From Paragyromitra xinjiangensis (Eukaryota; Ascomycota; Pezizomycetes; Pezizales; Discinaceae), in assembly GCA_038503065.1 (NCBI GenBank), contig JBCAMK010000014.1:1240001-1304000 (forward strand): a stretch of 64,000 nt of DNA, written 5' to 3'. Position 1 is the stretch's first letter. The number at the start of each line of letters is the position of its first letter. Under the pieces are notes generated by a model. That model had not been told where the DNA came from, searched no databases, and saw nothing but the letters and a program-made list of their open reading frames with translations. Shown piece after piece: positions 6,301 through 53,769 of the stretch. The translations under genes were made by a program, and so were the position numbers.

Positions 6301-6469
6301 CCGTGGTTGTGCAAATGCAATGCAGACCGTTTTGCCAGCCCAACTAAACTATATGAAGACGAAAAAAAATCCAATGAGATATACCGAATAAACCCTTGAA
6401 AATAAGCCCATAATCCCGTATCATACGCTGCTAGCAACAAAAGAAAAAGGAAAAAGAAAACCAAGCCTT
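3398..6469. other. Intergenic, repeat-like, no gene seen
   Basis: About 3.1 kb with no credible coding frame. It is A+T-leaning and contains short direct repeats (CACTAGGGTCTA twice near 4286 and 4332; CGCGCAGCAATAG twice near 4778 and 4862), which suggests old transposon debris. A 23-bp block at 4365-4387 recurs with one mismatch at 56379-56401. Confidence 0.5.
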
Positions 6470-9400
6470 TCACATGAAGTGAGAAGACTGGCTGGGGTCT
6501 AGTAAGAGGTCTTTGATCGTCGAGCTGAGCTCCTTGAAGTCAACAGGTTTGGACACATATCTTGAAAATCCGGCTGCAATGCAACGGTCCGCAACGTCTG
6601 ACATCACATTGGCTGACAAAGCAACTATCGGCACGCTTGGCGCATTGTGTTCCTGTTCCCAACGCCGAATTTCTATTGTAGCCTGGAATCCGTCTTTTCT
6701 CGGCATGTGAAGGTCGCACTATTCCAAAACAAATTAGGGATCAAACAAAAAATTTCTCGAGCGGAAAAGGACATACCAGGATGAGTCCGTAATACCCAGG
6801 CTCTTGAGCAAATACCTTTTCCACACATTCCTCCCCATCACTCGCAGTCTCCACCTCCAAGCCTACCCTTGCCAGGAAGCGCAAAAGCACTTTTTGATTA
6901 ACCCTATTGTCCTCAACAAGCAATACCCGATGACCTCTATTGCCAACTTCCCTCTCCATCTGACTAAACACCCTCTTCTGAGTCTCCACAACTTGTTGTG
7001 CTGAATCTCTGTTCCTATCCATCGACGCATCTCTCTCGTTCGCCGGATCGAAGATGACACCAAAGCGGGAAGGCTTGATGGGCTTGTAGATGAACTGTAA
7101 TCTAGAAGCCATCCGATCGCAATCCTGTGCCGCACCTTGCATTATTGCTGTCCGCTGGGTTGGGTTAGTGAGGACAAGCATGGTTGTTAGCGAATGAATT
7201 GAGCTGCTCAAAATTTGGCCGATGAGGTCAATGATTTCTGCGTGGTCTGGAAGGTTAACAACAATATGTGTAAACACAACTGGATCATCGCCACTGATTA
7301 ATTCTTTGCATTCGTCGAACTTTGAGGCTGTGGTAATTTGGTTGGGGATGTTTTTCGGCAAGGTGATTTTGATGTGGTGCGCTATAGCGATACGAGAGTA
7401 ATGTTGTTCTGATACGATTAAGATCGAGAACATTGGAGGGGAAACTGCGCGGCCGAGCTCTGAGCCCACCGAGGGCACTCTCTTCGGCGTAGGCTCTTTT
7501 TCTGCCGAGGTTGGGGGGCTGTACGCCTTATACTTTTGCTGGGCTTCAGTAGGGAGAGAAAGTCGCATTGAAGCAGGATCTGCAGGAGATGAAATCGGAA
7601 GGTGAGCCAAAGCTGACATAGAGGATCCAGTCGATGCAGAACGGAACGAACTTATCGAGGGATCCGAACTTGCCGACGATGCCGGAGCAGATGATTGCCC
7701 ATCACTAAATGTAAGACCCGGTGGCGTATCTGATGGAAACTCTGTGATTCTTTCCGTAATTCTGTCGGACTCTAAGATACCCTGGCGTTTACCCTGGGCA
7801 GGAATACCCGGTGGAATACTTGGTGGGATTCCAGGAGGAATGCCCTCTGGAGTGAGCGTTGCTGAAGACGACCCTTCATCTTGTGGCTTTTCCCTAGGCA
7901 CCCTAAACTTGGCGCTACAGATAAAAGTCCTATTCACACCATCAGTAAATTCGGCGCTGTTGCTAAGATGGCTCGAACTTACGATCCCTTCCCTTTCTCG
8001 CTGCTAGCGGTCATCCGCCCCCCATGAAGTTCCACCAACTGCCTAGAGATTACCAAGCCTAACCCGCTGCCGCCATGTGCTCTAGTACTAGATCCATCAA
8101 TTTGGCTGAAAGGCTTGAACATCAACTCCTCGTCTTTCTTATCGAATCCTGGTCCAGTATCATGGCACTCAAACTGCAACATAACGCCGTCATCTCCGCT
8201 GAGCCTATCGTCCCTGATGACAGAGCATCTAGAGAAAACTTCTCCCTTTGATGTGAACTTGATCGCATTCTGGAGTCACAAGCCAAAAGTGGTAAGCCAA
8301 TCATCACCCCCAAAAACAAAAACCCCCAACCAATACAGTGGTGCCAACATACCCCAATGACGTTCAAAAGGACTTGTCTTAACCGCACCCGATCCCCACA
8401 CACGACCGGCGGCACATCCTCTTCAACAATGAAATTCAACTCTAGGTCCTTCGCTATTGCCATAGTACTGAGGAGTTCGTTCGCATCCTCAATCAAGGAA
8501 TGAATCCTGAACCACTCCGGATTCAATCGCATCATGCCTGCCTCCACCTTTGAAAGGTCAAGGATATCATTGATTACGCTCAGCAACCCATCAGAGCTCT
8601 GTGATATCGTATGACAATAGTCTAACTGCTCCCCGTTCAAAGGAGTATCGAGCAAAAAATTGACCATTCCCGAAATCCCGATAAGCGGTGTTCCTAGTTA
8701 TCATCTCCCACATCAGCTATACGCAGGATGAGACACCCAGGGCAAGGAAACACTCACGGATTTCATGGCTCATGTTCGCCAAGAATCTTGTCTTACTCTC
8801 CATGGTCTTCTGGGCAGCCTCATTCGCCTCCTTCAATTTCTGCTCCAACAACTTATGGTCATTGATATCGGTACAAGTACCGAACCACTGACCCTCCCCA
8901 GTCCCAAAATTTGTCTCCACGCTCACACATCTCACTAGATGCCATCGATAATTCCCATGCTTGTCTTTCAGTCTCAACTCCGTTGAGAATGTAGGTTTTT
9001 CCTCTTCAATGCCTGTCGTGCCTCCTTTCGGACCTTCAAAACCCGAACTCTCAAAACCCGAGCCAGAACTTTCGAAGCCAGTACCAGAACCTCCGAAGTC
9101 AGAACTTCCAAACCCAGAAGTCCCCGGACCCGGACTCGTTGAACGAGGGCTTACTGATGGACTTCCACCCAAACCCGGCAGAGCACACTTGTATCGATCG
9201 TTGGGATGGACATGCTCCATGAATCCCAACCTTAGAGCTTGTGCAAGTGTCTGGCCAGAGTATCCTAGCCATTGAGTGTTCGCATATGAAATACCATCTA
9301 CGGCCGTGGCTGCGAATACAATCTGGGGACTAGAATTGGCAAGAGACCTATATTTACTTTCTGACTCGGCCATCTCTGCTTGTCGTGCGGCATCCACTTC

Positions 9401-12400
9401 TGCGATACGTTGGTCGTGGATATCCATATTCGTACCGAACCAATGGACAATAATCCCCCTCGAGTCCCGCAACGGAACTGCACGAATCATAAACCATCGG
9501 TAAACCCCATCAAATCGTCGAACACGGACTTGATGCGAGAAGGGTTCCCCTTTCCGAACTGCAATCCCCCAACGTTTGATATAATCATCTCGGTCATCAG
9601 GATGCATAGCATCAGATGGCCCCTTCATGAATTCCTCAACTGTTGCACCCCTGTAGGCAAGCATCCGGGCATTTACCCACGTAGTGTCCCCTGTATAGGG
9701 GGCAGCTGTGAACACATGTACCGGTATCGAATCGATAATAGTCCGAAGCAGTTTGTTGGATGGTGGAGGCATCTGATGGTGCTGCGATGAGGCAGATACG
9801 GACATTCTTGATGATGAACCGGGCCGTCTCCCAGACGGGGTTCCAGGAAGGGAAGTCGTTGCGGCTAAAGATTGAAACGTCGCGGAGTAATCTGCTCCAT
9901 ACGAATGCAGAAGTGTGTGAGGGTAATTTTGTCCAATTATCTTCAGGGCTGGTTTTTTTTTCCTTGGAAAACGTGAACGCCGCGACGGGGCTGATTCGGA
10001 CCCCGGCGATACAGAGGGTGAGTCTATGGTACTACCACCCCGGTCCCCAAGCTCATCCAAGTTAAGGGTTTTCTCTGAATCCGCAAGTTTCTTCATCACA
10101 TGATCCGATAAGGCAGAAAACGAAGGAGTATCTCGCGTAGGTTCCATATTCCTCTCCCGCTTCTGTGTTGCAGTACCTTGAATACCCCTTTTGAATTTGA
10201 CCGTCCCACCTGAACTTGCCCCCTCGTCCTCCTCCATCTGCAACTGCATTTCCAAACTCGCCATCGCCCCTTGTGTTTTCGCTGCTGATAACGCTGCTGC
10301 CGCTCGAATACTAGCATAGGTCGGAACATTACCACTGTTTTGCCTGCTAAAAATCTTTCTTTTATCTCGGGGAGGCTGGAAGTACCCTTCCAGATTATCA
10401 GGGCCAGGGCTAGCTGGTGTACTAGCTTGACTCTCCCGGGATCTAATGCTTCCTTGATCACTCCCTGATCTCGGTGGACCCAGACCTCCTCCTCCATCCC
10501 ATCCCGGACTGGCGACCCTCGAAGTGCTGCCTCTGGACATAGTGCTGACCTCGCTGGGGCTCGTAACACTAGCTCCTTCGACAATATCTGGAGATTTCAG
10601 CCCACACCTTAATGATGAATGTAATCCCGACTCAATATCCGCCATTTGTCTTCTAAGAGGTCGTCTATATCGTAAATGACTTAACTGATTCATAACATTG
10701 GAATGATTTTGTGCCAAAGAAAATGCCGTGGCTGCGAGGGGTGCAAAGTGGGATAAAGAATGGATAAGATTTCTAGGATAAGGGATGACAGGGCTCAGCA
10801 TGGATAATATTGCAATTGGGGACTTCTTGTGACCAGCCATATTGTGCCGGGAGAGATTATCGTTGTTCGACATGTTCAGGCTACCTCGGAAAGGAGATTC
10901 CACTCTGTGGGAAGCAGTCGCGGAACCCCCTCCAGCAGCCGCTGATGCAGACGGATTCAGGGACTTCGAGAAACTTGGATGTATCAGCGGTATATGAATA
11001 ACTGTCCATGCACTTTCAAACCCAATAGCATTGACTGGTTCCTGGGCTGAGTATACTGGACTGTTAGTTTGAGGGTTGAAAGTTTCCTCATCCACCTTTG
11101 GCGGAGCGAAGAACGGATTCTCAGTCGGATCCTGCTTCGGTGCTGGTGACGGGGCCGGGGACTGGCTCCACGGTGATGTAAGGGCTTGTTCATACTCTTC
11201 ATACGAAGAAGCCCTGTCGAGTGAATGTGAGTGAGTTTGCACATTTTGTAGATGCTGCTGCGCAGAATAGAACTGTAGACTAGGGTTTTGGGTACGATAC
11301 CCATCCTTCTGTGCACCCTTCTTCTTCCGCCGTATCCCTTTGCCAACAAAATACAACGGTGTCGGAGGCTGTGAGGGAAGCTGTATACTCATGTTGATAT
11401 TACTCAAATCCAATTTTTCCACTCCTTGAATAGATGCCTGCTCTGGGATCGATGCTTTCTTTTGTTTCGGTCGCTGCTCATTAGAAAATACCCGTGGTGG
11501 TGATGATTTAGGAGTATTAGCTGCCATCAACTCGGTTTCCCGACGTCTCTTCTCTCGTTCCTCCAGATGTGTTTTAATATCTCTATATTCCCTGCCAAGG
11601 ACAACTACCTTCCCTCTCTGCAAAACTCTACTGACACCAGCCCCATCCAACAATGCATCCGCTTCGTAATTTAATGGTTGCAGGGTCGGAAACACCCTCC
11701 CGCGCTGCTCATCCTCCTCTATCCCTTGAGAATAAGCCATGTTCTGTTTTTGACGTCCGAACTCTGGTGGCAAAGGCGGCGGTTGTGGGGGGTCCAATGG
11801 AGAAATACCGCTCGTTTCGGACAGCCAATCAGAATTGCTCGTATCCTCATTGTGTGGGTCAGAAAGCCCAATAGTAACAGGAGCAAACGGCTCATCAGAA
11901 TTCCTCTCAATCTGAAGAGGCACCGTAGTGTCTTCGTCTGGGTCTCCTAGGTTTCCGAAAAACCCTTCCTGTTCCATTTTCCCATTCATTGAATTCCCTG
12001 TGTCCCTTGGTATCGGAACGCCCTGATGTCCATCACTTTCCTCCCCTAACGAAGTTTCGTCTTGGTCGCCCACGCAGCCCCTCTCATCCCCAAGATATGT
12101 TAATGACAAACAGTCGTCCTCTGCTACGTTGAAAGTAGCTTTCTGGCCCCAGGGCGTATTTTCGAGATCCGTTGAGTCGGAAGGTACGGCAAGGGTGACT
12201 CTTTCTGCCTTATAGCAGGTTGTAGCGATTTTAACGACATTACTCCAGAAGGCATCGATACCAGCTTCTGAGTGTAGTAATAAAGCAAGGTCGTACATAT
12301 TTGGAGTTGGAAAATCAGGATTCTCGAAGGGGGTTATGGGTTGCGTACCCTGAGGTTGAAATGCAAATGAAGCTGGTGTGGTGGTACCTGATGGCAGAAT

Positions 12401-13075
12401 CCTATCATGAGGACCCATCCCAGGAGACATTGTTGTATTAAATGCGGTAGCTACGCTGTTACCAGTCAAGCTTCTGGACATGGTAGGTATCATCTGGGGG
12501 AATGGGTAAGAAGTCGAGGAGCTACTCGACTCGGGTTGTTTAGACTTCGACGAGGCAGTGGTCTTCACCCCCGAGGCGGGGGACCGGATGATATCTCCAC
12601 TTCGATTTTCTTTGGGGGTGGGGGGAGAACCTGGCGACGATGCTGTAATAGTTTGGTCCAACCGACTCTTCTTTCGAGACCGGGCCTGAGACCGCATCAC
12701 GGCCTTTCGAGAAATTAGAATCCCAAACATCCGAAAAACCAGCAACCCGGCCGCGAGCATGGAGAATAGCAACAGCAGGAGGGTTGCCGGAGGAGGGTTC
12801 GACAGCAGGAAGAATACCTCTTTCAAGCTCTCGATGGACGACTGCACGCCATGACCATTCCCGCTGCCATAACCAGTTCCTCCCTCAGCGTCCCCTCCTC
12901 CTAGCCCTCCTCCTCCTCCACTTCTTCCAACATGTCCCGTACCAGCAGTATTCGACGACGACGACGACGACGACGAGGGCATCGAATTGGTTGCATCTGT
13001 TGTAGAAGATTGAATATTTCGTGGGTACACAGTCGTTGATGGATACGCGGGTGGCGACGCGGGCGGCGATCGCAT
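6470..13075 (-). CDS. Membrane-tethered hybrid sensor histidine kinase with two PAS domains
   Basis: Five exons: 13075-8758, 8693-8353, 8269-7983, 7929-6777, 6718-6470 (introns of 64, 83, 53, 58 nt). The joined frame is 2,116 codons exactly, giving 2,115 residues. Order: Ser/Gly-rich N-terminus; one hydrophobic helix at residues about 97-120; a long disordered region with a GAF-like segment around residues 260-320; PAS1 about 1107-1225; PAS2 about 1233-1410 with a Ser/Gly-rich insertion; HisKA with the H-box NMSHEIRTP (His1437); HATPase with the N-box NVIGNAIKF, G1 box DTGPG and G2 box GGSGLGL; a disordered linker; and a receiver domain from about 1982 with VEDN and the phosphoacceptor Asp2035 in CDLHMP. 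Every catalytic motif is restored precisely by the splices, which confirms them. Role: autophosphorylating sensor that would pass phosphate via an HPt protein to Ssk1/Skn7-type regulators. The input signal is unknown and I do not assign a fungal HHK class. Residue length is large for the family because of disordered inserts. Confidence 0.93.
12953..12977 (+). repeat. (CGA)n trinucleotide run coding for poly-Ser
   Basis: About eight CGA units. On the minus strand they encode the Ser run in the N-terminus of the histidine kinase (residues about 34-41). Likely length-variable between strains. Confidence 0.8.
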
Positions 13076-16000
13076 AGCGTACCTTCTCCTCGATGTCTCG
13101 GCCGTCGGCGGTGAGCGGCTGATGTTGATTTGCAGCTCTGGGCAAGTATGACGTCGGTAGCTACCGGCAACTTGACAGCGACATTAAAATAATAATAAAA
13201 CTGCTTTCAAGAAAAAAAATAGATCCCTCTCCCGAGAAAGCGCAAAAAATAATCGTGGCGATCCAGGAACTTTGATGGTAGGGAAACGCAAAGAACGATA
13301 AGGGCAGCGGCAAGCGGTACCAACTTATTTTTCTTCCTTGGTTTCGTAGAGACGTTCAACGGAAGAGAAGAGCGACAAAGAATCCACGAAAGAATGAACG
13401 CGAAAACGGGAAAGATGATATCGATGACGACGATGACGGGGTGGCGATTTGTGTGAAAAGTGGACAAACGATCCTTCCTGCCCTGAGGCGAGAAATCTGG
13501 GCGGCAATAAAAGCAATCAATCAATATAAACGTTCTGATATTCTGCGCCCCTTCCCCTATTATCCCTTTCCCCCGTGCTCGCACTCGTTTTCCCACTTCC
13601 CCACTTTTCTTTTTCGCAACTGGATTTCCTGGTGCGCAATAGGGGGAAGAATTGGAGATTTTACCAGTTAAGACTCTAACGGTAAGAGTTAAGAATAAAA
13701 GGTATAAACGACGATAAAATTTATTGTTTGCTGTGTGATTGTAGAGGATTATAGCAGATGAGAGGCGAATCCACCGCAGGAACAAATGAAGCAAGACAAA
13801 AGGGCTGGAAAAAAATTAAAAATGGATGGATGGGTAACTAAGTACTTACTTACACGTAGGTATGTATGTATGTATGTAATGTATGTAGACTTGGTGATAG
13901 ATTGGGGGTTATCTGTCGTGCTGCGCAGACAGGCACAATCAAGGGGACTTTGGCCGGCAGGCGGTAGAGTAAAAGTGATCCCAAAAGCGAGAGAGTTGTG
14001 TAAACCCCAGACCGTCAAGAACTAAAGACCCTTTGCAGTTCGTCTCCACTCCACTCACTCACAAATGGATGTCGAGAAAAGTACTGAAGAGGAAATAGAA
14101 GGAAAAAAATAAAGTGAGGCCTCCCAAACAGAATCACACTCGCACAAAGACAGACAAGAAGAGCAAACACGGACACAGGCCTACGCAAGTGACGATAACC
14201 GTACCCACGGCTAGGCTGAGACGGGCTTGTGGGTAAAAAGAAAGGAAGAAAAAAAGTACGGACGTCAAACGGATCGATGGTGTCGTGAACTACCCTGTGC
14301 CGATACCTAGGCGAATAAGGCCCGGGACTTGGGATATCGGGTGATGTATACCGTATGTACGTGAAGCACACCGGTGTGGATGGATAGATGAAAGGGGAAT
14401 TTTTGAGAGTGGGAGTAACGATCTCTTCGATGGGATTGACGGATTGGGGGGGGGGATCAGAAGAATTGGTTAAGTGAGTCCACTTTTCCAGGACTGTTCC
14501 TCAATCCAGATACAAGCCGGTCTGCTGGCCTACTGTATGGTAGGGTAGAGTCAAAATACAGTATACACTTCGTATGTGAGTATGAATGTATGCGAGCATG
14601 TAAATGTATGTATGTATGTCTGTATGGGGGGAAGGGGGGGTGGTGACTCGACGATAGGAGTAGCAAAAGAAAGAGCAGCTCAGTTCTTCTGCTTGTTGAG
14701 AGCAGCTTCACCCGCAGCCCCAGAGAACGGAGGAAAGGGACTTGCAAACAGGGATACACAATCAAGATCCAGTTGGGGCCTGGAAAATGAACACAGAGAA
14801 AAACGAAGAATTAGCAGCTCTACGTCATGCCGCAGGAGGAGACAGAAGTCCATGCTGCTTCTGTGCCTAGCGAACACGCCATTGGGCAATGTGGGGGGGG
14901 AAAGGGGAGGCTGGGCCAGCTAGCAGGGTAACCACCTGACTTCTCGATGTGGGAAGCAGCGAGCGTCATAGGCAGCAAGACACCTGTCCTTGACGGGCAG
15001 CGACTTCGGTTCGTCAACTGCCACAGGTCGGAAAATTTAGCTATTTCAACCTCAACTTGCACAAAGTAGCTCATCATTTCTAGCGACTGGCTCGGAAAGC
15101 TTCAGCCAACAACAACCACAACAACAACATCAACAGTGAACTTGCTCTCCAGTCAATCTCCCAAAGACATGACAATCTACCCAGAAGACAAAGACAAGAA
15201 CTGAGATGCCGTTGCAAGTGAATTCAGAAGAGCCCCCCCCCCCCGCACCACCCCTGGCTTGTGTCTCATCGCAGTGTCGAACCTGTTTCCACCCGGCCGG
15301 CCCCCGCTTCTGTTCCCTCCGCAAGCAAAGCAAAGCGATCACGATCATCGATCGAAAGGTTAGCTACCGTACCCGTACTCTCTTCCACCGCTCACGAACG
15401 TCTGATTTTTTATTCTTTTTCAATCACCTTTTTTCTTTCCTTTTGCCTCACGCACGCTACGAATGCGCGCCAACAGCCTATGTATGTACCATAGGGCTTT
15501 AAGCATAAGACATCAAAATGTGCCGCCTGCCGTTTGCCGGCTACCAGACGCTCCAAGTCAAGCCTTCCCCCTCAGAGCCTCATCAGCCACACCTGTAAAG
15601 CTCCTCGGCCTCTGGCGTTTTAAGTAACCACCTTCTTCGGGAATGAGTCCGGGGGCCGTCTCCTAGGAATATCCTAAATAACAGGTGTCCTTTCCTATCT
15701 CGTCCCGCGACAATACAATACCTTTATCTGTGATAAGTACCTAAGTCTTCCGTGAAAGGATAAAGGATATCATACTCCAGCGAACTATGCATAACTAGAT
15801 GCTTGGGGTTCCCCGGAAATTGTTTCTCAAACGCAAATCGCCCGTATCTTACATATTTATTCCCAGATAACGTTGCTCGTTATCTCCCGTGGACGGGGCT
15901 TCTCCCACCCTCTTCCTCATGTCCGTCTATACCTTCAGGATACCTACCTAGAGCGGGGTTCATTTCTGGGTCAAATAGTGCTTTAGCCAAACCAACACGT

Positions 16001-16467
16001 CCGTAATTGCCTTAAATAAGATATAATTAGAGGTTTGTGCAGATGCGAATAAGGACCTGTAGCCCTCGGGATATTCCTGCTGTCTACAACTCAGCATTGA
16101 CACTTGACCACCGGGTCGGGTCGCCCTCTATCGTATCCATCGTTACTCTACAAAAAAACCCGTGAAGATCCCGAGCCACGCTCGGAATAGATCGTCAACC
16201 AGGCGTCATGGTATTCTCGGCAATGGCGTCAGTCGCACGCACATAAGACATTTGAACCCTAGTGTACGTGGCATAGATTATTGTAAATATTTATTGACCC
16301 TGGAGAAAAACACCTCATACATAAGGTACATCCATTCCTTCCCCGTTGACTGTGCAACAGTCCAAACCAGTCACGAAGATCTTATGCCGCCGAAAAGCAC
16401 ATACTCTTGCATTCCCAGCTAGGGAAGCCTAGCTATACCCCTTCGTATTAAACAAAAAAGACAATCA
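13076..16467. other. Long intergenic region upstream of the histidine kinase
   Basis: About 3.4 kb between a divergent 5' end (histidine kinase) and the 3' end of the LENG1-like gene. It holds tetranucleotide TATG/GTAT repeats near 13860 and 14605, several poly-G and poly-C runs (14446, 14632, 14892, 15233) and pyrimidine tracts. Open frames here are short and lack domain-like composition. A long 5' UTR or regulatory region of the histidine kinase is plausible for the nearest ~1 kb. Confidence 0.5.
13860..13888. repeat. TATG tetranucleotide microsatellite
   Basis: Four to five TATG units followed by an interrupted copy. A second, poorer run of the same unit lies at about 14603-14620. Confidence 0.85.
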
Positions 16468-33978: not shown

Positions 33979-36900
33979 ATGGAGCGATACACGGTTTCAA
34001 TTCGATTCCCAGAATCTGGGTCGGATCTCCGGCTTCTGATACCGTTCCTCTCAACTTCTTCAGTATTGGAATTTGGAGACGAAGTAAAAAAACGTTCTGA
34101 AAAACAGGGATTCCTTATGGGTGAGCGAGTAATTTTCTTCCGCCTAGAACAAGATGATGGCCCTATTCTCGATATGGATGATAGGCTGAACGAAGTCATC
34201 GTTGATCCTCGGAGCGAGAAAATTTTTGTTACTTTCCAAAATACAATCACCGAGGTCATGAGAACTAGGAGAGAAGCTGTAAGTTTACTTAATAGTGAAG
34301 CTGAGTCTACCGAGAGAAAAGCCTCATTTTGAGTTGTTTTAGGCACCTAGTATGAGTATGCCGGGTCGTGAAGGGTTCAAGATTCGTGTCATCACTCCAT
34401 TTATTGCAAAGTCTTTCAAAGACGCAAGCTCTATTCCACTTTTAGCAAACGGTAGAATCTTCGACGGCTGTGTGACCCTTCGCGAGATTAAAGCCCTAAT
34501 AATAGGTTTTCTGGGGTTATCCGTGAATATATCGGTTGATTCACAAGGCTACCAAGAGTGCAACTGTATGTTTGCACGTAGGATACATAAACGTGGACAC
34601 TGGGGGAAAATAGAGTGTTGCGGCCACTATGGGGGGTCTGGCAAGTGTTCTTATAACTTGAACCATGGGCAAGCCTCGATGTCAGCATCTTGTGCAATTT
34701 GTGGTGAACCGCTTGCGAATCACGGGCACGGGGAGCCAACTTGTGGAAGGGTATTTTTCCGAACAGATACTTCATGCGGTCATGCTTTCCATAGCTATTG
34801 CTTGGGGTTAGGAAATACCTGGAGTTGTCCTGAGAACTGCCTTTCTTGTAAGTTATAAGTATCGTTTTATTTTGTAATGTTTGTTTACTTCGAGTGTTCT
34901 ATAGGAAATGACTGATGTGTGAGATGGGTGTCTTTAGTGGCGGGAAGTCTGGCTACTCAAACTGCTCCCTACAAGTTGGTCGTGGTGCATGGGAGAAGCA
35001 ATGTAAGATGGGTGGAGGTGGGCCGCGCCGATCGAACATCCATATTGGCTGCAGTTCGGGAAATATTGGGAGGTGAAATGTTGGAAAGAAGTTCTATCAA
35101 CTTCATCGGTGGTGTGGCACATCCATCCTCAAGGTAAGCGCCGGTGTCATATTCACGAAAGCGATTATCTGACAAGTAGCTAGTGACAAATACCTTAAAC
35201 TTCCTGTAGTTTCCCTGTGTTCCCAGAGGCGGCATACGGATGATGCGACTTCAGGCCGGCCGGCCGGGGGAACTGATACTGGCTTGGATGGCATGGATAC
35301 ACAAAAAAAAAGCCTTGATCTTCATACCTCAGAAGCTCCTATTGAGACAACTAATCTCAGTCTCACTATTGACGAAATTGGCTTGGGAGAATGTGCTGTC
35401 AACGGGGTCTTGAGCATATACGCGGTTGAGCGAACGGTCTCCACCAACCCTCCAGCAAAGGGGCCTGGGCAGCATGCAATATTCATGAACGCTGATTTTT
35501 GGGTTGGTATTCCTTTCTCTAAATGGACTTGACAGCTTGTTGATGTTTTTATGTAGGAAAATCCCACTAGCCAGTCAGAACGGGGAATGGCTGCGTTTCT
35601 TTCCTCACTGAGGCTTTTCACCGATCGGATGAACACGAAAAAAATGAACCAGTCATCTCAAAATGCTATTCTTTGCCTGGTTTTGTTTTTTACTCGGTTT
35701 CCGCCGGCGCTTCGGGCCATCTATACTCTCATGAGTGGAAAATCTCCTCGGCCCTCCGAGTGCGCGGCTTTGGTGCAAGTTCTCTACGAAGTAGTAAAAG
35801 ATATAGTCCCGCTCGAACTTGTTGATTCTGATGAGGCCAGGATCTTGGAAGGTTCACGACTGCTATTCGGGTTTCTGCTTGATAGGGCTACGCAAATGGA
35901 GGATGCGGATCAAAATTCTTTTCCGTATCTTTGGTCCCTGAAAACAATTGATTTGAAGAGTTTTGAGACAATGGAGCCAGTAGAAGTCCCTGTCTTGACA
36001 TCCGTTGGGTTGGTTGAAGAAGGATACTATAAAGCATATAGGGAGGGTGGGATCCTGAGTTGGTGTAATGGCGAAGAACCCCTTAGGGCGGTAAGACTGG
36101 ATCATCAAACCCGAAGAATAGCGTTGCTGTGTGGCGGTATGGTTCCGGAAATTACGATTTTTGACTCGGATTCTCTTAGCCATCTATCATCTGGTAGAGA
36201 TATTGAAGGGGAGGAACTCATCAAAGAACAGTCATTCTCAAGTCTTAATCATCTTACTACCCTCTGTGGACGCAATAACTTCGCAGTTGTTCCACCAGCT
36301 GACCTTCCATCCTCAACCGCGCCAGCTCTAACTCTTGATCAGGATGGGCTTCTTGCTGTGTACGTTGGCAGAACACCGTGCGCAGCGCCAGGGAAGGAGT
36401 AAGTAGTTCTGTTTGGATTTTATAGGGAATGTTAAAGCCATATAGATCTGTGTTGATTCAGACGATAGTATTGCTATTTTCCGCCCGACGAAAGAGGGTG
36501 AGGAGAACATTGATGTGTCGATTGTAACACAACTTATCAGCCCGATACTTCAGCAACGCAGCGAGAATGGGACTTGGGTCTTTGACTTGTTTGGGGGAGT
36601 CCAGAAGGGAAGAACCAGAAAACCGGACGAATTGATAATGTTTTGCGTTGACTGTAGCAGAAGCATGGGCGGATCCTCTGATTTTGAGGAGGCTAATGGC
36701 GAGGAGAACAGTAATGGCACGGAAGAAGGGGAGGAGCCAAGTATGCTAGGAAACCCAGATATGGAGGATAGTGTGTCCTCAAATTCAACTTTTGGCGAAA
36801 TGAGAGGTAAGTAATATAAAATCCCCGGGTGTCAAATCTATGGGTCCTATTCTTAGTTTTATTTGTCTAGACATGGTATCGAGCCATGAATCGTTCGAGG

Positions 36901-39900
36901 ATATACTTGCTATCGTGAAAAGCACAAACGTAGCGTGTAAGCTGTCCATTGCTTCTCTTGTCCTCGAGTATATGGGGACGCTTTTATCGCGGGAGCTTTC
37001 CCACATTCTAGAAAAATTGGAGACCTTGAGGGCGTCAGCAACAGAGAGATTCTACCAACACCGGGGCGGTTATTTCAGACGACAAATTACAAAGTTAAAG
37101 AATCATATAGTAGGCCTTGTTACTCATAAGAAAGCTTTGTGTGACTTTATCATGTTCCGTGCTGCGAATTTTGGGGATAGGGATTGGACATGGGAGATTG
37201 GGAGCGAGATACCGAAATGGCCGAAGGAGCTCCAGCGAGAACCTGAAGTTCAGAACTTATTCATTATTCCCCAGGTGAGTTACTATTGAATATAGTGAAG
37301 GCTCTAAGCTGAAGGAATTCTGCAGGAATATATCTGCCCGATAGGACTTGAACTTTTTAATGGTTAATATCTTGGATTTACCTTTCATTAAATCATCTAA
37401 CGGTTGATAGATCCTGTCATCGCGAGTGATGGTTTCACATATGAACGGTCATCTATCCAAAGATGGTTTCAGTTTCGGAAGTCCTCGCCATCAACGGGGC
37501 TAGAAATTGACGATATCACTGTGAGGCGTAATTTCTCTCTGGCTGAGGAGGTAAGAAAATGGATCAACGGCGAAGAGCTTTTAGAATCGCCTGCCTGGGG
37601 TTCGAGAAGACGAACTGCTCGGTTTGGGGAATCTAAATTACTGGTCACCTTTTCCAGTCGACTAGGTTCCTTTAGCCGCCAAATCTATATAAATATTTCG
37701 GTTTCTTCTCTCTACAAACTTGCATTTCAGGGAATGAAGGGGAGATACTCCAAGTTTGATCTCCGGTTCAACGGCAGGATCATAGATTCGTCTGGGGGCT
37801 CTGGCTTGCCATCTGGCCTAACAGGAAATTCTATAATCCATATTATCATCCATGAAACTGCACCTACTCCTTCCGTTAGTGAGGAGACTGCATATCCAGT
37901 GGACTTCGAAGAGATATCTCTTATCAAGGTGTATGGTGCGCTAGGCCATGATGACGCTACTTTCTCCTACTGGATACCTAAAGTCACTGCTAATTCCTTT
38001 ACTTCAATAATTTTCCGTTATTGGAGGTACTTCGCAGAGAAGGGCCTATCATTCAAGGCGGAAGACGCAGCTGTTTGGATCGGTATGGAATACGTAGGGG
38101 ACGGGTCTTTTTCCGGCAGGATCAAAGATCACTGGGAACGTGTATCAGGGTATTTGAAGCCAGAGCATGCAACCGGGAACCTGGGGAAAGAAAAAGTTTG
38201 CGCCATGGAAGTGTGCACAGAGGAAGCTTCAGAGATGATAGAAACCGACCTTGCCCCAGAATATTCTCACAATCTGTTGGTACTTAAAGTATACATGAGT
38301 AGGAGGAAAATGGATAGGGTAAAAAAGCGAATGAGAGAGTCGAAGACCTTATCAAGGGTAAGGTGTTCTGGTCCATTAGATTGAAGAATTTATGCTAAAT
38401 AAATCGCCTCAGATGGATGTGTCAAAGCAGATATTCGATGCTTTCATCAATAGAACACTTGCCTATAACTACACCACACATATTGGCATGTTAACCTCTT
38501 CTAAAATTGGTGTCAAAAACTGACAGATTTTATTAGGATTGATAACTTTTGATTCAACAGCTAAGGTCTCCCAACCGCTAACTAACGTTCTCGAAGACTT
38601 TCGAGAATCGGTTAATAATATGAGTCCGCGAGGTGATACTGCGCTATGGGATGCTCTTTTTCTTGCGAACCAAGAGCTATGTGAATATGGGAAAAAGTTC
38701 CCTGATGCGAAAAAGCGAATCATTTGTCTTTCTGATGGCGAGGACAATAAATCTTCACACAAGAGTTACGAAACTTGTTGGAGCCTTGTGGTTTGTAGCC
38801 TGGATGGAGATCTAGTAGGGATACTTGTCTTATGATCACTGATTTATGAATAGTCAAACCAAGTTGTTGTCGACTCATTCTGTGTGGGTGATGTTGATAA
38901 CACGGCTCTTCGTACAATCTCGTATCTGTATGGCCTATAGATTTTCTTCCTGGATTCTTGAGTCTTGTTGACGTTTGGCAGTTCCGGTGGTTACAAATTT
39001 TTCCCCAAGACCTTGGAACAAGCGATGTCTATTTGTGAGATGGAACCTGTTCTTAGCCAACTCGAAAGGCCCCCAATTGTTCGGGAAACCATTCCACAGC
39101 TGAGTTCCACCCAAACTGCGTAAGAATTCAAAACTCTTCAAGTAGAATCACATGCTTACTGGTGTGCAAAGTCTGTTTTTGTCATCGGGGCGTAAAGCGG
39201 TAAAAAAAGCACTCCTAGTGTTGTATTTGGAGAAATCAAGCTGAATGTTGAATAGGCTCCTGATATTGTCACACGCGACGCATTTCCGGAACGAAAACAA
39301 CATCCTAATCTAGTTGATCAATTTGTGAGCCTCTCGGCACTAGCTCACGTCAGTAGGTCATCAACTTCGACCCTTAGTTCTTCTATTGGAGTTCGATCAA
39401 ATTCACATGTGCGATCGGCACGTCTGCTTTCTGAGGTGAGTTTGGTCGGTGTTAATGATTATCGAGACTTGCCTCATGTAGGGAAATAGTTGAGGAATAT
39501 TGTGGCGAATCCACACCCACACTACGACGTTTACGTTTCAGAGTCGAACATTGGGTTTTGGAAAATCGTAATGGAGGGGGTCAGTTCCGAATCTCCGCTA
39601 TATTTGAATGAGCTGCTAATGTTTTTTTAAAAATCTATGGCAGCCCCCGGGGAGCTCTTACCAGGAAGGTACTTTTCTCTTGTACCTCGACATGGAGGAT
39701 AATTATCCGACGTTCCCGCCAAAGGGTAGATTGTGCACACCTATCATCCACCCAAATATCAACAGACATGGGAGAATTTGTCATAGTATACTCGATCGTA
39801 AGTGGATGCTGGAGGTCTAAAATAATTGTATATCAACTGATATGTAAACCTGGTTAGGGAACTGGACGCTGGACACGACGAATTTGCAGATTCTCAATAC

Positions 39901-40121
39901 AATCTATTCATTATTGCTCGTGCCTGAACACAGCGACCCAATGTAAGTACTATAAGACCAATTGAGAAGGTTGTTACTGATATAGTATTTGAAGTAACAC
40001 GGTCGTCACACTCAACTTTCATTGGGATGAGGTTGCGTTCCAAGAGGATGTGAAGGCCCACATCAGGCAGCATGCGATCAAGTCAAGACACGAATGGAGA
40101 GCAGAGTTGCTAGGGGTTTAA
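33979..40121 (+). CDS. Ubiquitin-system fusion: Ubl-like + RING-like + VWA split by U-box/Ubl + E2 (UBC)
   Basis: Nineteen exons in my model: 33979-34278, 34343-34847, 34938-35133, 35184-35502, 35557-36398, 36469-36806, 36871-37274, 37326-37362, 37411-38357, 38413-38485, 38537-38790, 38854-38927, 38982-39119, 39172-39199, 39256-39435, 39490-39579, 39644-39797, 39858-39942, 39995-40121. Sum 5,091 nt, 1,696 residues, no internal stop. Visible in order: beta-grasp-like region 1-95; a RING-like cluster with CAIC at 217-220, CGHAFHSYC at 245-253 and CPENC at 262-266; a ubiquitin-like strand pattern about 280-330; a helical region; VWA first strand with the MIDAS motif D782-x-S784-x-S786; U-box about 969-1040 (EYICPIG, DPVIASDG, RSSIQRW); ubiquitin-like fold about 1055-1128; VWA remainder about 1297-1470 (GLITFDS, GDTALWDAL, SDGEDN, VVVDSF, GGYKFFP); UBC about 1540-1690 with HPN at 1611-1613 and active-site Cys1621 in GRICHSIL. 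By family knowledge the UBC carries thioester-linked ubiquitin and RING/U-box recruit E2, so this would be a self-contained E2-E3. The UBC part has no start codon of its own in frame, supporting one gene. One intron (38486-38536) uses a GC donor. Weakest points: acceptor at 35184, exon at 39172-39199. Confidence 0.85.
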
Positions 40122-45803: not shown

Positions 45804-46919
45804 ATGAGCTCGAAATCAACAGTGGTGCCTGCGCTGCCGGCGAAGGGGGAGATTAAAGCGGAGGTAGAAGCGACGAAGAAGGCGTCGATGTCTGGGTTGC
45901 GTTCGCTGGTTGCTGGAGGTGTTGGTGGTGTTTGTGCTGTTCTGAGTGGTATGTTTCTGTTTCCCATTTTCTACGGCAGGGGAGGATGGGAGAAGGAAGC
46001 TTGTGGGACTAATGGGGACCTTAGGACATCCATTTGATCTGGTCAAAGTACGGCTGCAAACAGCGGAGAAAGGCGTCTACCGAGGCGCCTTCGACGTCGT
46101 GGGCAAGACTGTCGCCAGAGAGGGTGTATTTAGAGTATGTTTCTCACCAAACCCAAACACCAAAACAAGAAGCTAATCTAACCTCAGGGCCTATATGCCG
46201 GAGTCTCCGCTCCCCTCCTCGGAGTAACCCCAATGTGTAAGTTCTCCCCCCCTCACTATCCCAACACTACTAACCACCCAACAGTCGCCGTCTCCTTCTG
46301 GGGCTACGACGTCGGCAAAGGCCTCGTCCGGCGCTTCTCCACCGTCGAAAACAACCAATTTTCCGTCGCCCAAATCTCCGCCGCCGGTTTCTTCTCCGCA
46401 ATCCCAATGACCCTCATCACAGCTCCCTTCGAGCGCGTCAAAGTCCTCCTCCAAATACAAGGCCAAACCCCCGGAGAGAAAAAGTACAAAGGTGGTGTCG
46501 ACGTCGTACGGCAACTCTACAAAGAAGGCGGTGTACGCTCCGTCTTCCGCGGTTCAGCAGCAACACTCGCACGTGACGGCCCAGGGTCCGCTGCGTACTT
46601 TGCTGCCTATGAGATAGTGAAGAAGTATCTAAGTAAAGGCGAGGAACTGAGTTTGAGCGCTGTGATGATTGCCGGTGGTGCTGCGGGTATGGCGATGTGG
46701 TTATTGATCTTCCCAATTGATACAGTGAAGAGTCGGTTGCAGAGTGCGGAGGGGAAACCAACGATTGGAAGCGTGGTGAGGGAGATTAATGCCCGGGGTG
46801 GGTTTAAGGCGTTTTTCCCGGGGTTGGGACCGGCGCTGGCGAGGAGTGTGCCGGCTAATGCGTTTACGTTTTTGGGCGTTGAGTTGGCGCATAAGGCGAT
46901 GAATAAGATGTTTGATTAA
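45804..46919 (+). CDS. Mitochondrial carnitine/acylcarnitine carrier
   Basis: Four exons, 45804-45948, 46025-46134, 46188-46236, 46285-46919; 313 codons, 312 residues, the standard length. It has three repeats of the mitochondrial carrier fold, each with the PxD/ExxK/R signature: HPFDLVKVRLQ, APFERVKVLLQ and FPIDTVKSRLQ, so six membrane helices in the inner membrane. The segments GLYAGVSAPLLGVTPMF and SFWGYDVGK are those of the AcuH/Crc1 carnitine carriers. Such carriers exchange acetyl- or acylcarnitine for carnitine, bringing acetyl units from peroxisomes and cytosol into mitochondria; in Aspergillus acuH is needed for growth on acetate and fatty acids. The N-terminal ~30 residues are a polar extension. 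A close amino-acid-type carrier is the alternative, but the motif set favours carnitine. Confidence 0.92.
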
Positions 46920-49430: not shown

Positions 49431-52400
49431 TCAATTCCTTAATTCATCCACTGCTACATCCTTTACATTCTTGTTGTCCGGTTTGACCATAACTGATTTT
49501 ACTAGGCTGCTCACTGGCGTCCGTGGGTTGTCATTTTCCACCAGCGGTTGTCTTGGGGAATTGGATAACACCCTAGCGTTTTGGTCGAAGTTTATTGTTT
49601 GGCTATGGGATTGAACTTCTGTATCTCCTGAAACCCTTTCGACTTCCGGCCGTAGCAGTGGCAAGCCAGAGCCTAATTGGCCAGAAAACCCCCCGCGCGC
49701 CTGACCAAGTGACATCAGATTGCCTTGAGGCTGATCATCACTATCCGGCTGGGGCCTTGCATTATTGTCAAGAGCTTCGTTGGAATTCTCCTCACTATCT
49801 AGGCCTTGAGTAAAACTGCTACTAGGGGATTCGGCATCCATCAGATGTAGCGATCTCATCGTTTCTCTTCCAGGTGCTTCCGCAGGCGCGGGGGTGCCAG
49901 CAATTTGAGGGGCTTCTCTACTGCTTATAGCACCTTGCATTGATGGATGCTTAGTTGTCCTCTCAATATCCAAATTTCCTTCACGCGTGCGCGCACCAAC
50001 TTCTGTGGGTCCTTCTGGGGCAAAGCGTGACTGAGGTAAGTTATCGCGTGCCCTTTCAAACAGTTCTCGTACTTTCTGGGCTAAGTTCTCATTACTTTGT
50101 GGGATCGCTTCATGCACTTGAGCCCCTGTAGTTTGATATTGTGCACAGAAACTAGTGGACCCGGCTCCAAAAGATTCAGCTCTTGACTGGGGGCGTCGGT
50201 ATCTTGAATCAGTAGTAGATCGTTCTCTTTCAGGGCCAAAAAACGATTCACTCCGATATTGCTGCCTCTGGTACTCCGAACGTCTTCCATTATTGCTTGT
50301 CTCTCCGGACCTAAAGTCTTGGCTACTTGGTGGGAATCTATTATATTCTTGTATCCTTCCGCTTCCTACTCCTTCTGATAAGGATCTGCTTGAAGATTGT
50401 CTTCCGTCGTAGTGAGGTCTGGGAGTAGCTTGTCTGTTGATAGCGCCGTAAACGTTTCCGGTGGACCAGGTTCTTCCACGAGGCTGGATTCTTTGTGTTG
50501 TATGTCTCTCTGCGATGCCATATGTATATGTGTGTAAACTTCCACTAGAAGAACCTCTTCTGTGTTCTTGATGGTGCTGCATGGCATTATTTGCACCTGG
50601 AAAACTTGCACTGCTAAACCTTGATGCTGAAGGCCTTGGTCGAGCATACCTTCCGAGGGATTCAGGTTCGCTGCTACTAGATGGTCTTCTAACTTGTTCG
50701 GCTCGACGCGTGCTAAAATTCCCATCTGAGGTTCGGTAAGTGCTTTGACTTGGTGGTATATCTCGTAAGGGAACTCTTCCTGTATGATTGGGGCAAATTT
50801 CAGGTTCAGCAGGGCTTGATTCGAGGTTACCTTTGGTTATACCCATGCGCAAGTCTCCTGGGCTAACAAATCCTCTATCCAGTGTGTAAAAGGTATTGCG
50901 ATAACGTTCTTGCGCCGAGGTTACGGACGATGAAGCTTCCCGACTCAATGGAGATAGTTCGCCACTAGATATACTTCCTTCCCCAACAACGCTTGTAGGC
51001 CGTTTGACGACCGTATCAGTTGAAGAAGATGCACTAACGTGTAGGTTTCCTGTCATCTTTACATCTCTAGTATTCGATCCTTGGTTATGAATAGAAGATC
51101 CATTGTCAGTTAGAGATGGGTATCTACAAAATCCCGGACGCTCATTATTCGTATTGGTGTCAAGTTTTCCATCGGAGTGGCTAATAGAGGTTCCTTTTTG
51201 CTTCCCCTGACCTTGTATAAAGGCGGGCGGCTGTGGGCCAGCGGTTTCTTCAGGTGTAAGTTCACCATCCACAGGGCTTTTCAAAGAGAGACTGTTGGCA
51301 CGCCCTAGACGTTCGGCAGTGACTTCCTCAACCCCGAGTCTAGACATATAATATTGATCCGATAAATTCTGGTCACCCTCAGGGACGAATGGAATGGTTC
51401 TCCGACCTTGGTTGCTCGTACTCCTCTCTCTCCTAGGAGAGAATGAGTCAGTGAGGGTGCTTTCGGTAATTCTCCCAAAGGTCAGAGATTTCAGTTGCTC
51501 CGGCGGTATGTCAACTCGCGATCTACTCCTTCCACCTGGGGATTCCCAAAGTTCAGTACCCGTAGAAGCCGGGTCAGCAACGCCAAAATCACTATCGGGT
51601 GTCGGGCTGATCTGTTCGTTGTGAACTAAAGATTGATTATCACCCTGGGTGACGTGCGGCTCAGTACCGACATATCGTAGGGGGAGATTTGGGTCCCACG
51701 TTGCCCTCAGATTACGAGAAGAGTGAGTCGTCCCTCCAGAACCACAAGCAATTTCCATCTCAGAATCTTGTCTTATCATTATTGCAGACATCGTAGCCCA
51801 TTCTGTTGGTAGTAAATTGCTGCCTGCACGCTGCTTCCCTTTGCCCTCTCTCACCGAGCCGTGTTCTAGTGCTTGTCTCATCGTCACATGCTCACTACCC
51901 TCAAGTATAGAGGACTCTGGAAATTTTATCCTCCGCTGTAGTATCTGGTCCTTCTGGTTGTGCAGTTTCTTCCCTTTCCCAGCATTTGAAATATTTTGCT
52001 TTGCATTTTCTAACATAACTGGAAGTGAGCTGATTCTTTTTGCCATTCTTCTCCCAGTTCTTTTCGCAAATATCAAAATTTGCTTTTTCTTTGGGATTTC
52101 GTTCAATTCGATTAAGGTATCGTTAAATACCAACGGAGGTGACATAGAATCCCCTCTTCCTTTCTTTAACCGCGTTTCTTGGGTGGGCTGATGAGGAACT
52201 GCAGTCGACAATACTTTGATGCGATCCATCCAGATCTTTGGGTACTCTACTGGATTCTCATTTTTGTAATCGGTGATTAAGTTAAGAGGAACATTATCTA
52301 ACCAGGAAGAGCCTTGACGATCGTATACGCACCTAAGGCACCAGCAGATAAAACGTTCTTTCAGGACGCTAGCTCTCACAGTTACGTTCACTTCTGTACA

Positions 52401-53769
52401 GAGTGCCTCCACGTAAGAAATAGTTATTTCTTCACCTTGTTCGATGTCCCTGCGGGCGTGGAGCCAGTGTTGACATTGGCCAGTACCCCGCAGCTTCCGG
52501 TTATACGTCATTCCAACGGCATTTGGCATACAGCTGTGGTTTACCCTAGACAAGTGCTCGAAAACACCCCATTCACAATATCCTTCCTTTTGACAGCATG
52601 ATGGCAAGCATATAGCATTCGAAATAAAAATTTCTTTAAGCTCGTTGATCTCGAGTCCCGTATGATGGTGATCGAACAAAAGCCCACAGATTCTTGGGTC
52701 TCTTTTTGTTAAGGAGAGATAGGCATCTCTTTCTGTCTGGTCAAGGTTTTGAACAGCTGCCATCACTGACGGGATACGAGTAGCGCCTTTTAGTTGATCT
52801 TGATGTAGCTCTAGAGCAATCATTGGTGTTTCGCCAAAAATTGGCTCGCCCTTAAGGATCCTACGCGTAGCGAACATACCAACTTGTCCAATTGACTGGG
52901 TGTCTCTGGAGCTGGTAGGCGAATATCTAGACCGAAGCTCCCTAATTTCCCAACAGCGTGCTTCTACAGTTATGTTCAGCAGCAGCATAAACAAATAAAT
53001 GATAGAGTCAATTCCTACCTTGCTTGAAGAGTAGCCTCTGCTCAAGCTCATCTAAGTGAAAAGAAATCATATCTCTTTCTTGTTCGCTGGTAACCTCTTG
53101 AATAGAACCTTTCAAGATATTGATTTTGCAGAAATTGCACTGGCACCAAAAACCATAGAAGTAACGGCAATGTTCTCTTACATTCTCCAGCGCCATAAAA
53201 ATACCCAGCTTAAGGAATTTCTCGGAGTAGTCGATAGTGATCTCTGTCCCGGCATTAAGGATATTTGAAGCAGCGACGACCCTCATCTCTCCATTGGTTC
53301 TATCCCACGCAAGATATGCATTTGCAGCGCAGGCATGATTGATCCGGGAAATGTCTTTGAAAATACCTGTAGCATCTTCGTGGAGGAAGAAAAAGTTGGT
53401 GAGATAGATTCCCAACAATTCGAGTGCGCAGGTTGGCTCAGATATCTCTCTGGTGATTCCAACATCCGGTGGGCAGGGATCAGCTCGAGTCAGAAACTTT
53501 TTGCGGGAGTTATTAAGCCTTAAAAAGTCTTTTTGATCATAACGATTCATATTTTTGAAAGAATTGACAATCGGGTGGCTTGATATGTCATTTGCAACGT
53601 ACCGCCATAGCTGCTTCATGAAAGGCTGTGAAGATTTGTAGGGGACTCTAACCAACGGCTTCTCCGTGAATATAAGTTCATATTTGTGGTATGGACGTCT
53701 CGTGTGAAGCCCCATCCCTTTGGCAATACATTCCTTATCAGGAACCAAACGATATTCGTGAGTGCTCAT
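49431..53769 (-). CDS. Tandem double SET-domain protein with long disordered tail
   Basis: Two exons, 53769-53019 and 52963-49431 (55-nt intron, GTAGGA donor, TGTAG acceptor); 1,428 codons, 1,427 residues. The first SET domain spans about 1-240: GMGLHTRRPYHKYELIF, SRINHACAANAYL, NAGTEITIDYSE and a post-SET-like CQCNFC. The second spans about 250-490: GMFATRRILKGEPIFGE, SRVNHSCMPNAVG, EQGEEITISYVE and CWCLRC. Both keep the pseudoknot residues (N-H-x-C and the Asp/Ser-Tyr motif) that bind AdoMet. Layout is SMYD/set5-like but without an obvious MYND zinc finger. The splice falls between the two domains. The remaining ~900 residues are Ser/Arg/Pro/Gly-rich and disordered. By family it would methylate protein lysines; the target is unknown. 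Without the splice the second exon would still give a long frame, so the alternative is two adjacent genes, but the second frame's own start lies inside the intron-side sequence and is less convincing. Confidence 0.85.

What the first reader, a model, noticed from the sequence alone, without database searches (positions are those of the whole stretch)
33979..40121. One polypeptide that carries E2, U-box, RING-like, VWA and ubiquitin-like modules
Seen in sequence: 19 exons splice into one 1,696-codon frame with HPN plus active-site Cys of a UBC domain at the end, a U-box, a RING-like Cys/His cluster, a MIDAS-type VWA and at least two beta-grasp segments. Known: E2s receive ubiquitin from E1, and RING/U-box domains position charged E2s. 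Inference: a self-contained conjugation machine whose VWA and N-terminal region choose the target. I do not recognise a named protein with this order.
Basis: partly seen in the sequence, partly recalled or inferred. Interest (0 to 1): 0.88.

Follow-up and report, generated by a model that had tools for sequence, protein, structure and literature searches.

The report
Fungal E2 with U-box nested in VWA
This fungal gene encodes one large protein that carries its own ubiquitin-conjugating (E2) domain together with ligase-type (U-box and RING) and ubiquitin-like modules, the U-box being built into a metal-site VWA domain; relatives occur in many fungi and its activity is still untested.

Summary
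Nineteen exons (33979-40121, +) join into one 1,696-codon frame; four relatives compared at the junctions read across most of them. Pfam finds UBC, U-box, VWA and RING above their cut-offs. In 62 aligned rows the E2 Asn/Cys, the VWA metal-site residues and U-box Trp/Pro are kept in 57 to 62.

Of 62 proteins found, 54 list VWA, U-box and UBC; the named ones are filamentous ascomycetes and one chytrid. Two unnamed proteins share the nested plan.

Best reading: a single-chain E2/E3 hybrid that needs an outside E1; that the VWA binds clients or gates the U-box is inferred. No activity was tested. Known analogues (PARP-UBC, BIRC6, UBE2O, RGLG) each share one aspect only.

The parts
33979..40121 (+). 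whole gene, 19 exons, 1,696 aa. Exons: 33979-34278, 34343-34847, 34938-35133, 35184-35502, 35557-36398, 36469-36806, 36871-37274, 37326-37362, 37411-38357, 38413-38485, 38537-38790, 38854-38927, 38982-39119, 39172-39199, 39256-39435, 39490-39579, 39644-39797, 39858-39942, 39995-40121
   Evidence: spliced translation without stop; junctions beside four relatives
33979..34248 (+). N-terminal ubiquitin-like (beta-grasp) domain, about aa 1-90
34691..34846 (+). RING-type zinc cluster, aa 217-268
   Evidence: Pfam zf-RING_UBOX 29.1 bits, cut-off 25.2. Of 38 relatives with sequence at this place, 3 (P0009, P0048, P0058) have a Cys/His-rich stretch of 115-150 residues, 35 have only 29-47 residues there
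36629..36676 (+). first piece of the VWA: strand 1 and MIDAS D-C-S-R-S-M (aa 782-787 at 36650-36667)
   Evidence: D782, S784 and S786 each 60 of 62 rows; fold match spans both pieces (on relative P0001)
37266..37568 (+). U-box, aa 966-1033 (introns 37275-37325 and 37363-37410), inside the VWA
   Evidence: Pfam U-box 52.7 bits; W999 and P1007 60 of 62 rows, the two others being short-type rows
37635..37853 (+). beta-grasp unit after the U-box, aa 1056-1128; no C-terminal Gly-Gly
   Evidence: strands and helix in the model of P0001; same place is Pfam ubiquitin in P0063
38346..39042 (+). second piece of the VWA, about aa 1293-1450, with T1355 and D1387 of the MIDAS
   Evidence: Pfam VWA_2 from profile position 12 on; T1355 and D1387 62 of 62 rows
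39421..40061 (+). UBC (E2) domain, aa 1541-1677; HPN at 39749-39757, active-site Cys1621 at 39779-39781
38486..38536 (+). intron 10, the only one that needs a GC donor
   Evidence: frame and relatives

Best explanation
The gene encodes a single-chain E2/E3 hybrid of the ubiquitin system. A separate E1 loads ubiquitin onto Cys1621 of the C-terminal E2 domain (inferred from the intact active site). The U-box, in the same chain or in a partner copy of a dimer, holds the charged E2 in its reactive state, so that ubiquitin goes to a protein bound by the VWA, the conserved middle part or the N-terminus (inferred). The U-box is carried on a cassette that grows out of the metal-site loop of the VWA, so ligand or metal binding there is well placed to move the U-box and switch the enzyme (inferred, weakest step). 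The N-terminal RING, present here but absent from 35 of 38 relatives covering that place, is an optional second E2-contact site (inferred). The beta-grasp unit after the U-box does not end in Gly-Gly and is taken as a fixed binding module, not a modifier. Shown here: gene model, domains, nesting, conserved catalytic residues, spread. Not shown: any activity.
For: Domains above cut-off; catalytic and MIDAS residues conserved; 54 of 62 found proteins list VWA, U-box and UBC together (of the other 8, P0016 lacks a listed VWA, P0040, P0045 and P0049 a listed UBC, P0058, P0060 and P0061 a U-box, P0062 matches by U-box only); the VWA closes as one fold across the insert; a second gene in the same genome lacks the insert, two alignment pieces meeting at one point of it, and has the UBC cysteine in a following exon; MIDAS-to-strand-2 spacing 47-68 residues in the 93 of 119 short-type proteins that could be measured, 272-551 in 55 of 63 long-type ones, 537 in the window; in P0065 the spacing is 130 and the U-box follows the UBC, so the pairing outlasts a change of place. 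Analogy: plant RGLG ligases join VWA and RING, and two papers on Ca2+ control of their VWA stand in the reference list of PMC12647413 (titles only; one asked for and not held).
Against: No transcript or protein data. The E2 loop that usually contacts RING/U-box domains differs: the S-P-A positions read T-x-D (T 54, D 56 of 62) and the UbcH5 F62 / Ubc13 M64 position is variable (alignment; their role is recalled), so the E2 may not use its own U-box in the usual way. Short-type relatives have VWA and UBC without a U-box; HPN is in 112 of 119 of them, but a simple HPN-to-Cys pattern in only 35, at least some being frames cut at an intron; the cysteine is seen in the own-genome paralogue, P0060 and P0174. 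Basidiomycete P0058 keeps the E2 while its U-box is not recognised by Pfam. So the E2 can do without a U-box. The relative positions of U-box and E2 were not tested (pTM 0.60; no PAE or coordinates).
Confidence: 0.6

Rival explanations
1. The UBC domain is an active E2, but U-box and RING serve other E2s in trans; the protein is a scaffold that brings several E2s to one client, not a machine working on its own E2.
For: The E3-contact loop of the E2 is unusual (T-x-D for S-P-A), while the U-box keeps its usual contact residues (position 974: 51 Ile, 7 Met, 2 Leu, 1 Val, 1 Lys of 62; W999 and P1007 60 of 62; that these are contact residues is recalled). Short-type relatives have UBC without a U-box.
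Against: 54 of 62 found proteins list both, and P0065 has both in another order.
Confidence: 0.26
2. Two neighbouring genes, a VWA/U-box gene and a separate E2 gene, are wrongly joined in the model.
For: No RNA evidence; exon 14 is 28 nt and intron 10 needs a GC donor.
Against: The frame runs through without a stop; relatives in many species are predicted as one protein; in the paralogue on contig C5 one uninterrupted 875-codon frame already holds VWA and the first half of UBC.
Confidence: 0.03
3. A structural, non-catalytic protein: a VWA scaffold of the TFIIH type with worn-out ubiquitin domains.
For: The VWA fold is closest to TFIIH subunits; p44 also has a VWA and a C4C4 RING (PMC4094531, passages).
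Against: HPN, Cys and U-box core are conserved across the rows, which is not expected of worn-out domains. For yeast Ssl1 an E3 activity has itself been proposed (same paper, passages).
Confidence: 0.08

Closest known systems
Fungal PARP clade 6A (PARP6/8-like) with C-terminal UBC domain
   Same: large fungal multidomain protein ending in an E2 domain with its cysteine (PMC2964712, passages; PMC4245714, passages)
   Different: no PARP domain here; no VWA or U-box named for clade 6A in the passages seen. A PARP-UBC candidate lies elsewhere in this genome (PARP match C14:469675, UBC match C14:470806); its stretch L011 gave no tblastn match to this protein
BIRC6 (BRUCE) and UBE2O, multidomain E2s
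   Same: [quoted passage not shown] UBE2O called a hybrid E2/E3 in an abstract start (PMC12635394, listing only)
   Different: no BIR domain here; those lack U-box, RING and VWA (recalled)
Plant RGLG (VWA + RING) ligases
   Same: VWA with a ligase domain; RGLG1/2 interact with UBC13 (PMC12647413, passages)
   Different: RING follows the VWA there; no nested U-box, E2 a separate protein
TFIIH p44/Ssl1
   Same: closest VWA fold: top rows are TFIIH entries (that the chains are p44/Ssl1 is recalled); E3 activity proposed for Ssl1 (PMC4094531, passages)
   Different: no E2, no U-box (recalled); C-terminal C4C4 RING
Short fungal VWA-UBC proteins (for example P0066, P0060)
   Same: same VWA-UBC core; 42 sampled rows form one clade beside the long type (support 100, quick tree)
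   Different: VWA with short spacing, no U-box listed, no RING seen in those read

Membership tests
Ubiquitin-conjugating enzyme (E2, UBC fold) | UBC fold with HPN and active-site cysteine | tested here: met
   [not shown]
Ubiquitin-conjugating enzyme (E2, UBC fold) | accepts ubiquitin from E1 as thioester | not testable with these tools
   needs purified protein
U-box E3 | U-box domain with E2-contact residues | tested here: met
   52.7 bits, cut-off 21.4; I/W/P positions conserved
U-box E3 | ligase activity | not testable with these tools
   needs assay
RING E3 | RING zinc cluster | tested here: met
   29.1 bits, cut-off 25.2; low confidence in the model of P0009 (pLDDT about 45-75); in P0048 only below-cut-off RING matches, in P0058 none
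VWA with MIDAS | D-x-S-x-S, T and D of the metal site in a VWA fold | tested here: met
   residues; fold; motif definition PMC4094531 (passages)
VWA with MIDAS | binds a divalent metal | not testable with these tools
   needs binding assay
Fungal PARP6/8-UBC | PARP catalytic domain | tested here: not met
   not among the 8 families at E <= 1 in the whole-protein Pfam scan
BIRC6/BRUCE | BIR repeat | tested here: not met
   not among the 8 families
RGLG / copine ligase | copine-type VWA followed by RING | tested here: not met
   no copine family; the RING lies before the VWA
TFIIH p44/Ssl1 | Ssl1-type family with C-terminal C4C4 zinc domain | tested here: not met
   fold match only; no Ssl1 family

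The most novel reading that the evidence does not exclude
An ancient eukaryotic class of self-gated ubiquitin enzymes: ligand or metal binding at the MIDAS of the VWA moves a U-box/ubiquitin-like cassette that grows out of that same loop onto the fused E2, through a contact that no longer uses the standard S-P-A loop. Switch, ligase and conjugase would then be one mechanical unit.
Probability: 0.2. Interest if true: 0.82.

Novelty: new variant of a known kind. Interest (0 to 1): 0.64.

Why it matters
E2 and E3 are normally separate proteins, and control of ubiquitin transfer by a VWA domain is little explored. A family that has both enzyme types and a metal-site domain in one chain, with natural short forms that lack the U-box and one form with the U-box moved, is a ready set for testing how E2 and E3 cooperate in cis. 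It would also correct database labels such as 'peptidylprolyl isomerase'.

Tried and rejected
Gene models: a splice search with strict site scores found no path; a relaxed one gave 1,629 codons counting the stop, with spurious introns; a hand model had one wrong acceptor, the next was 15 residues short. A relative's sequence led to the acceptor before 35184. Searches used the shorter model.

Prokaryotic or viral relatives: none confirmed in the GTDB contigs (5 pattern matches) or in IMG/VR (63 pattern matches). These scans used two and three short patterns and could miss distant relatives.

Ubiquitin-like unit as modifier: set aside, as the unit after the U-box does not end in Gly-Gly in this protein or in P0063.

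Internal copies: profile comparisons among beta-grasp units and RING gave nothing (probabilities under 2%). The 50 Foldseek rows shown for the P0001 model are all E2s, so the VWA match comes from the second look; the insert's own units were not searched alone. Foldseek matches of the N-terminal model are mostly to linear ubiquitin chains and ISG15 with large rmsd and say little beyond ubiquitin folds.

Tree: a quick one, rooted by my choice on P0063, with long end branches (P0058, P0065, P0064, P0059 among others) and a warning that P0063 and P0064 may join falsely. Rows: of 184 (183 proteins and the window), P0062 was left out by hand and 4 had under 250 aligned residues; 2 more were dropped for overlong segments; of the 177 left, all 64 long-type (including P0058 and P0065) and 42 of 113 short-type rows went in. 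That the insert is ancestral and was lost in the short clade depends on this root.

Full report
What is there. The gene at 33979-40121 (+) has 19 exons and a 1,696-codon frame. The 18 introns are short (48-90 nt); 17 are GT-AG, one needs a GC donor. Each junction was printed beside four relatives; the junctions after exons 1, 2, 13 and 14 lie in poorly conserved sequence and are less certain.

Domains. Pfam on the joined protein gives UBC 99.5 bits, U-box 52.7, VWA_2 44.2, VWA 34.4 and RING 29.1, all over their curated cut-offs (run on the 15-residue-shorter model). Structure models were made for parts of relatives, not of the window protein itself: P0001 residues 648-1635 (mean pLDDT 79.1, pTM 0.60) and P0009 residues 1-755 (82.9, 0.74).

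Conservation. On the alignment of the window protein with 61 relatives (P0062, a U-box-only match, left out): D782 60 of 62, S784 60, S786 60, T1355 62, D1387 62; U-box W999 60 and P1007 60 (the two exceptions are the short-type rows P0060 and P0061); HPN Asn 58; Cys1621 57 (4 gaps, 1 Gln). The E2 loop that usually reads S-P-A reads T-x-D (T 54, D 56 of 62), and the position of UbcH5 F62 / Ubc13 M64 is variable (Ubc13 alignment; the role of these positions is recalled).

Spread. Of 62 proteins found, 54 list VWA, U-box and UBC (only the 7,992 candidates sharing most words were scored, so this is a lower bound). Many are unnamed. The named ones are ascomycetes (Cadophora, Cladophialophora, Alternaria, Chaetomium, Orbilia, Kalaharituber and others; placement recalled) and one chytrid (Podochytrium); one basidiomycete (Collybiopsis, P0058) has an insert of similar length in which Pfam finds no U-box. 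A search from the chytrid protein returned itself and three unnamed proteins: P0063 and P0064 with the nested plan and RING-H2 matches over a cut-off, P0063 also with a Pfam ubiquitin domain right after the U-box; and P0065 with a spacing of 130 and the U-box after the UBC. At the place of the window's RING, 3 of the 38 relatives that cover it have a long Cys/His-rich stretch; Pfam gave only below-cut-off RING matches for P0048, none for P0058, and P0009 was not scanned. A search from the short paralogue gave 143 proteins, 120 listed, of which one (P0183) lists a U-box. In a quick tree the 42 sampled short rows form one clade (support 100) and 59 long rows another (96), with chytrid, basidiomycete and the three unnamed proteins outside. 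With that root the insert is old and was lost in the short clade; the root is my choice. No relative was confirmed in prokaryotic or viral contigs.

How it probably works. The intact active site makes an E1-charged E2 likely; E1-type matches are present elsewhere in the genome (12 ThiF matches). U-box and E2 in one chain suggest an E2/E3 hybrid. Against a simple cis action speak the altered E2 loop and the short relatives that have the UBC without a U-box. The VWA metal-site residues are invariant or nearly so, and the cassette starts at that loop, so control by ligand or metal is plausible; this is inference.

What is known. Fungal PARP-UBC fusions (PMC2964712 and PMC4245714, passages), BIRC6 and UBE2O (PMC11354881, passages), plant RGLG (PMC12647413, passages) and TFIIH p44 (PMC4094531, passages) each share one aspect. 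PMC4327156, a survey of ubiquitin-system architectures, was seen in passages only and its supplements not at all. Five answered paper searches were aimed at this kind of protein and three at analogues; only open-licence papers are held, so a description elsewhere is possible. Databases hold members as 'hypothetical protein', 'peptidylprolyl isomerase' or 'ubiquitin-protein ligase/Mg-chelatase subunit ChlD'.

Verdict. Real, conserved and unusual. The domain kinds are known; the nested combination did not turn up in the searches made. Function is inferred.

Noticed in passing
35920-36129 (aa 562-631): The conserved stretch before the VWA resembles the family's own U-box in a profile comparison (aa 552-660 used; probability 61.5%, P 7.8e-5 for one pair), and in P0058 and P0059 it looks more U-box-like by eye: possibly a worn-out second U-box.
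   Followed up: partly
L010 (C5:257500-267400 of the same genome), 4145-6545 on the - strand: Short paralogue: VWA with short spacing followed by UBC, no U-box, UBC cysteine present.
   Followed up: yes
C14:469675-471003 of the same genome (L011, L027): PARP and UBC matches about 1 kb apart: a candidate for the known fungal PARP-UBC fusion.
   Followed up: no
P0065: Unnamed relative in which the U-box follows the UBC and the VWA spacing is 130 residues: a natural domain shuffle.
   Followed up: partly
database names: Several members are labelled 'peptidylprolyl isomerase', although no isomerase family was found in the window protein; probably carried over from U-box annotation (guess).
   Followed up: no
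6744-13183 (-): ORFs with PAS fold and a below-cut-off response-regulator match: perhaps a hybrid histidine kinase.
   Followed up: no
49434-53051 (-): 1,206-codon frame with a SET domain.
   Followed up: no
46182-46916 (+): Mitochondrial carrier protein.
   Followed up: no
16336-16428 (-): tRNA-Arg (TCG).
   Followed up: no
38486-38536: Intron with a GC donor inside the VWA coding part.
   Followed up: no
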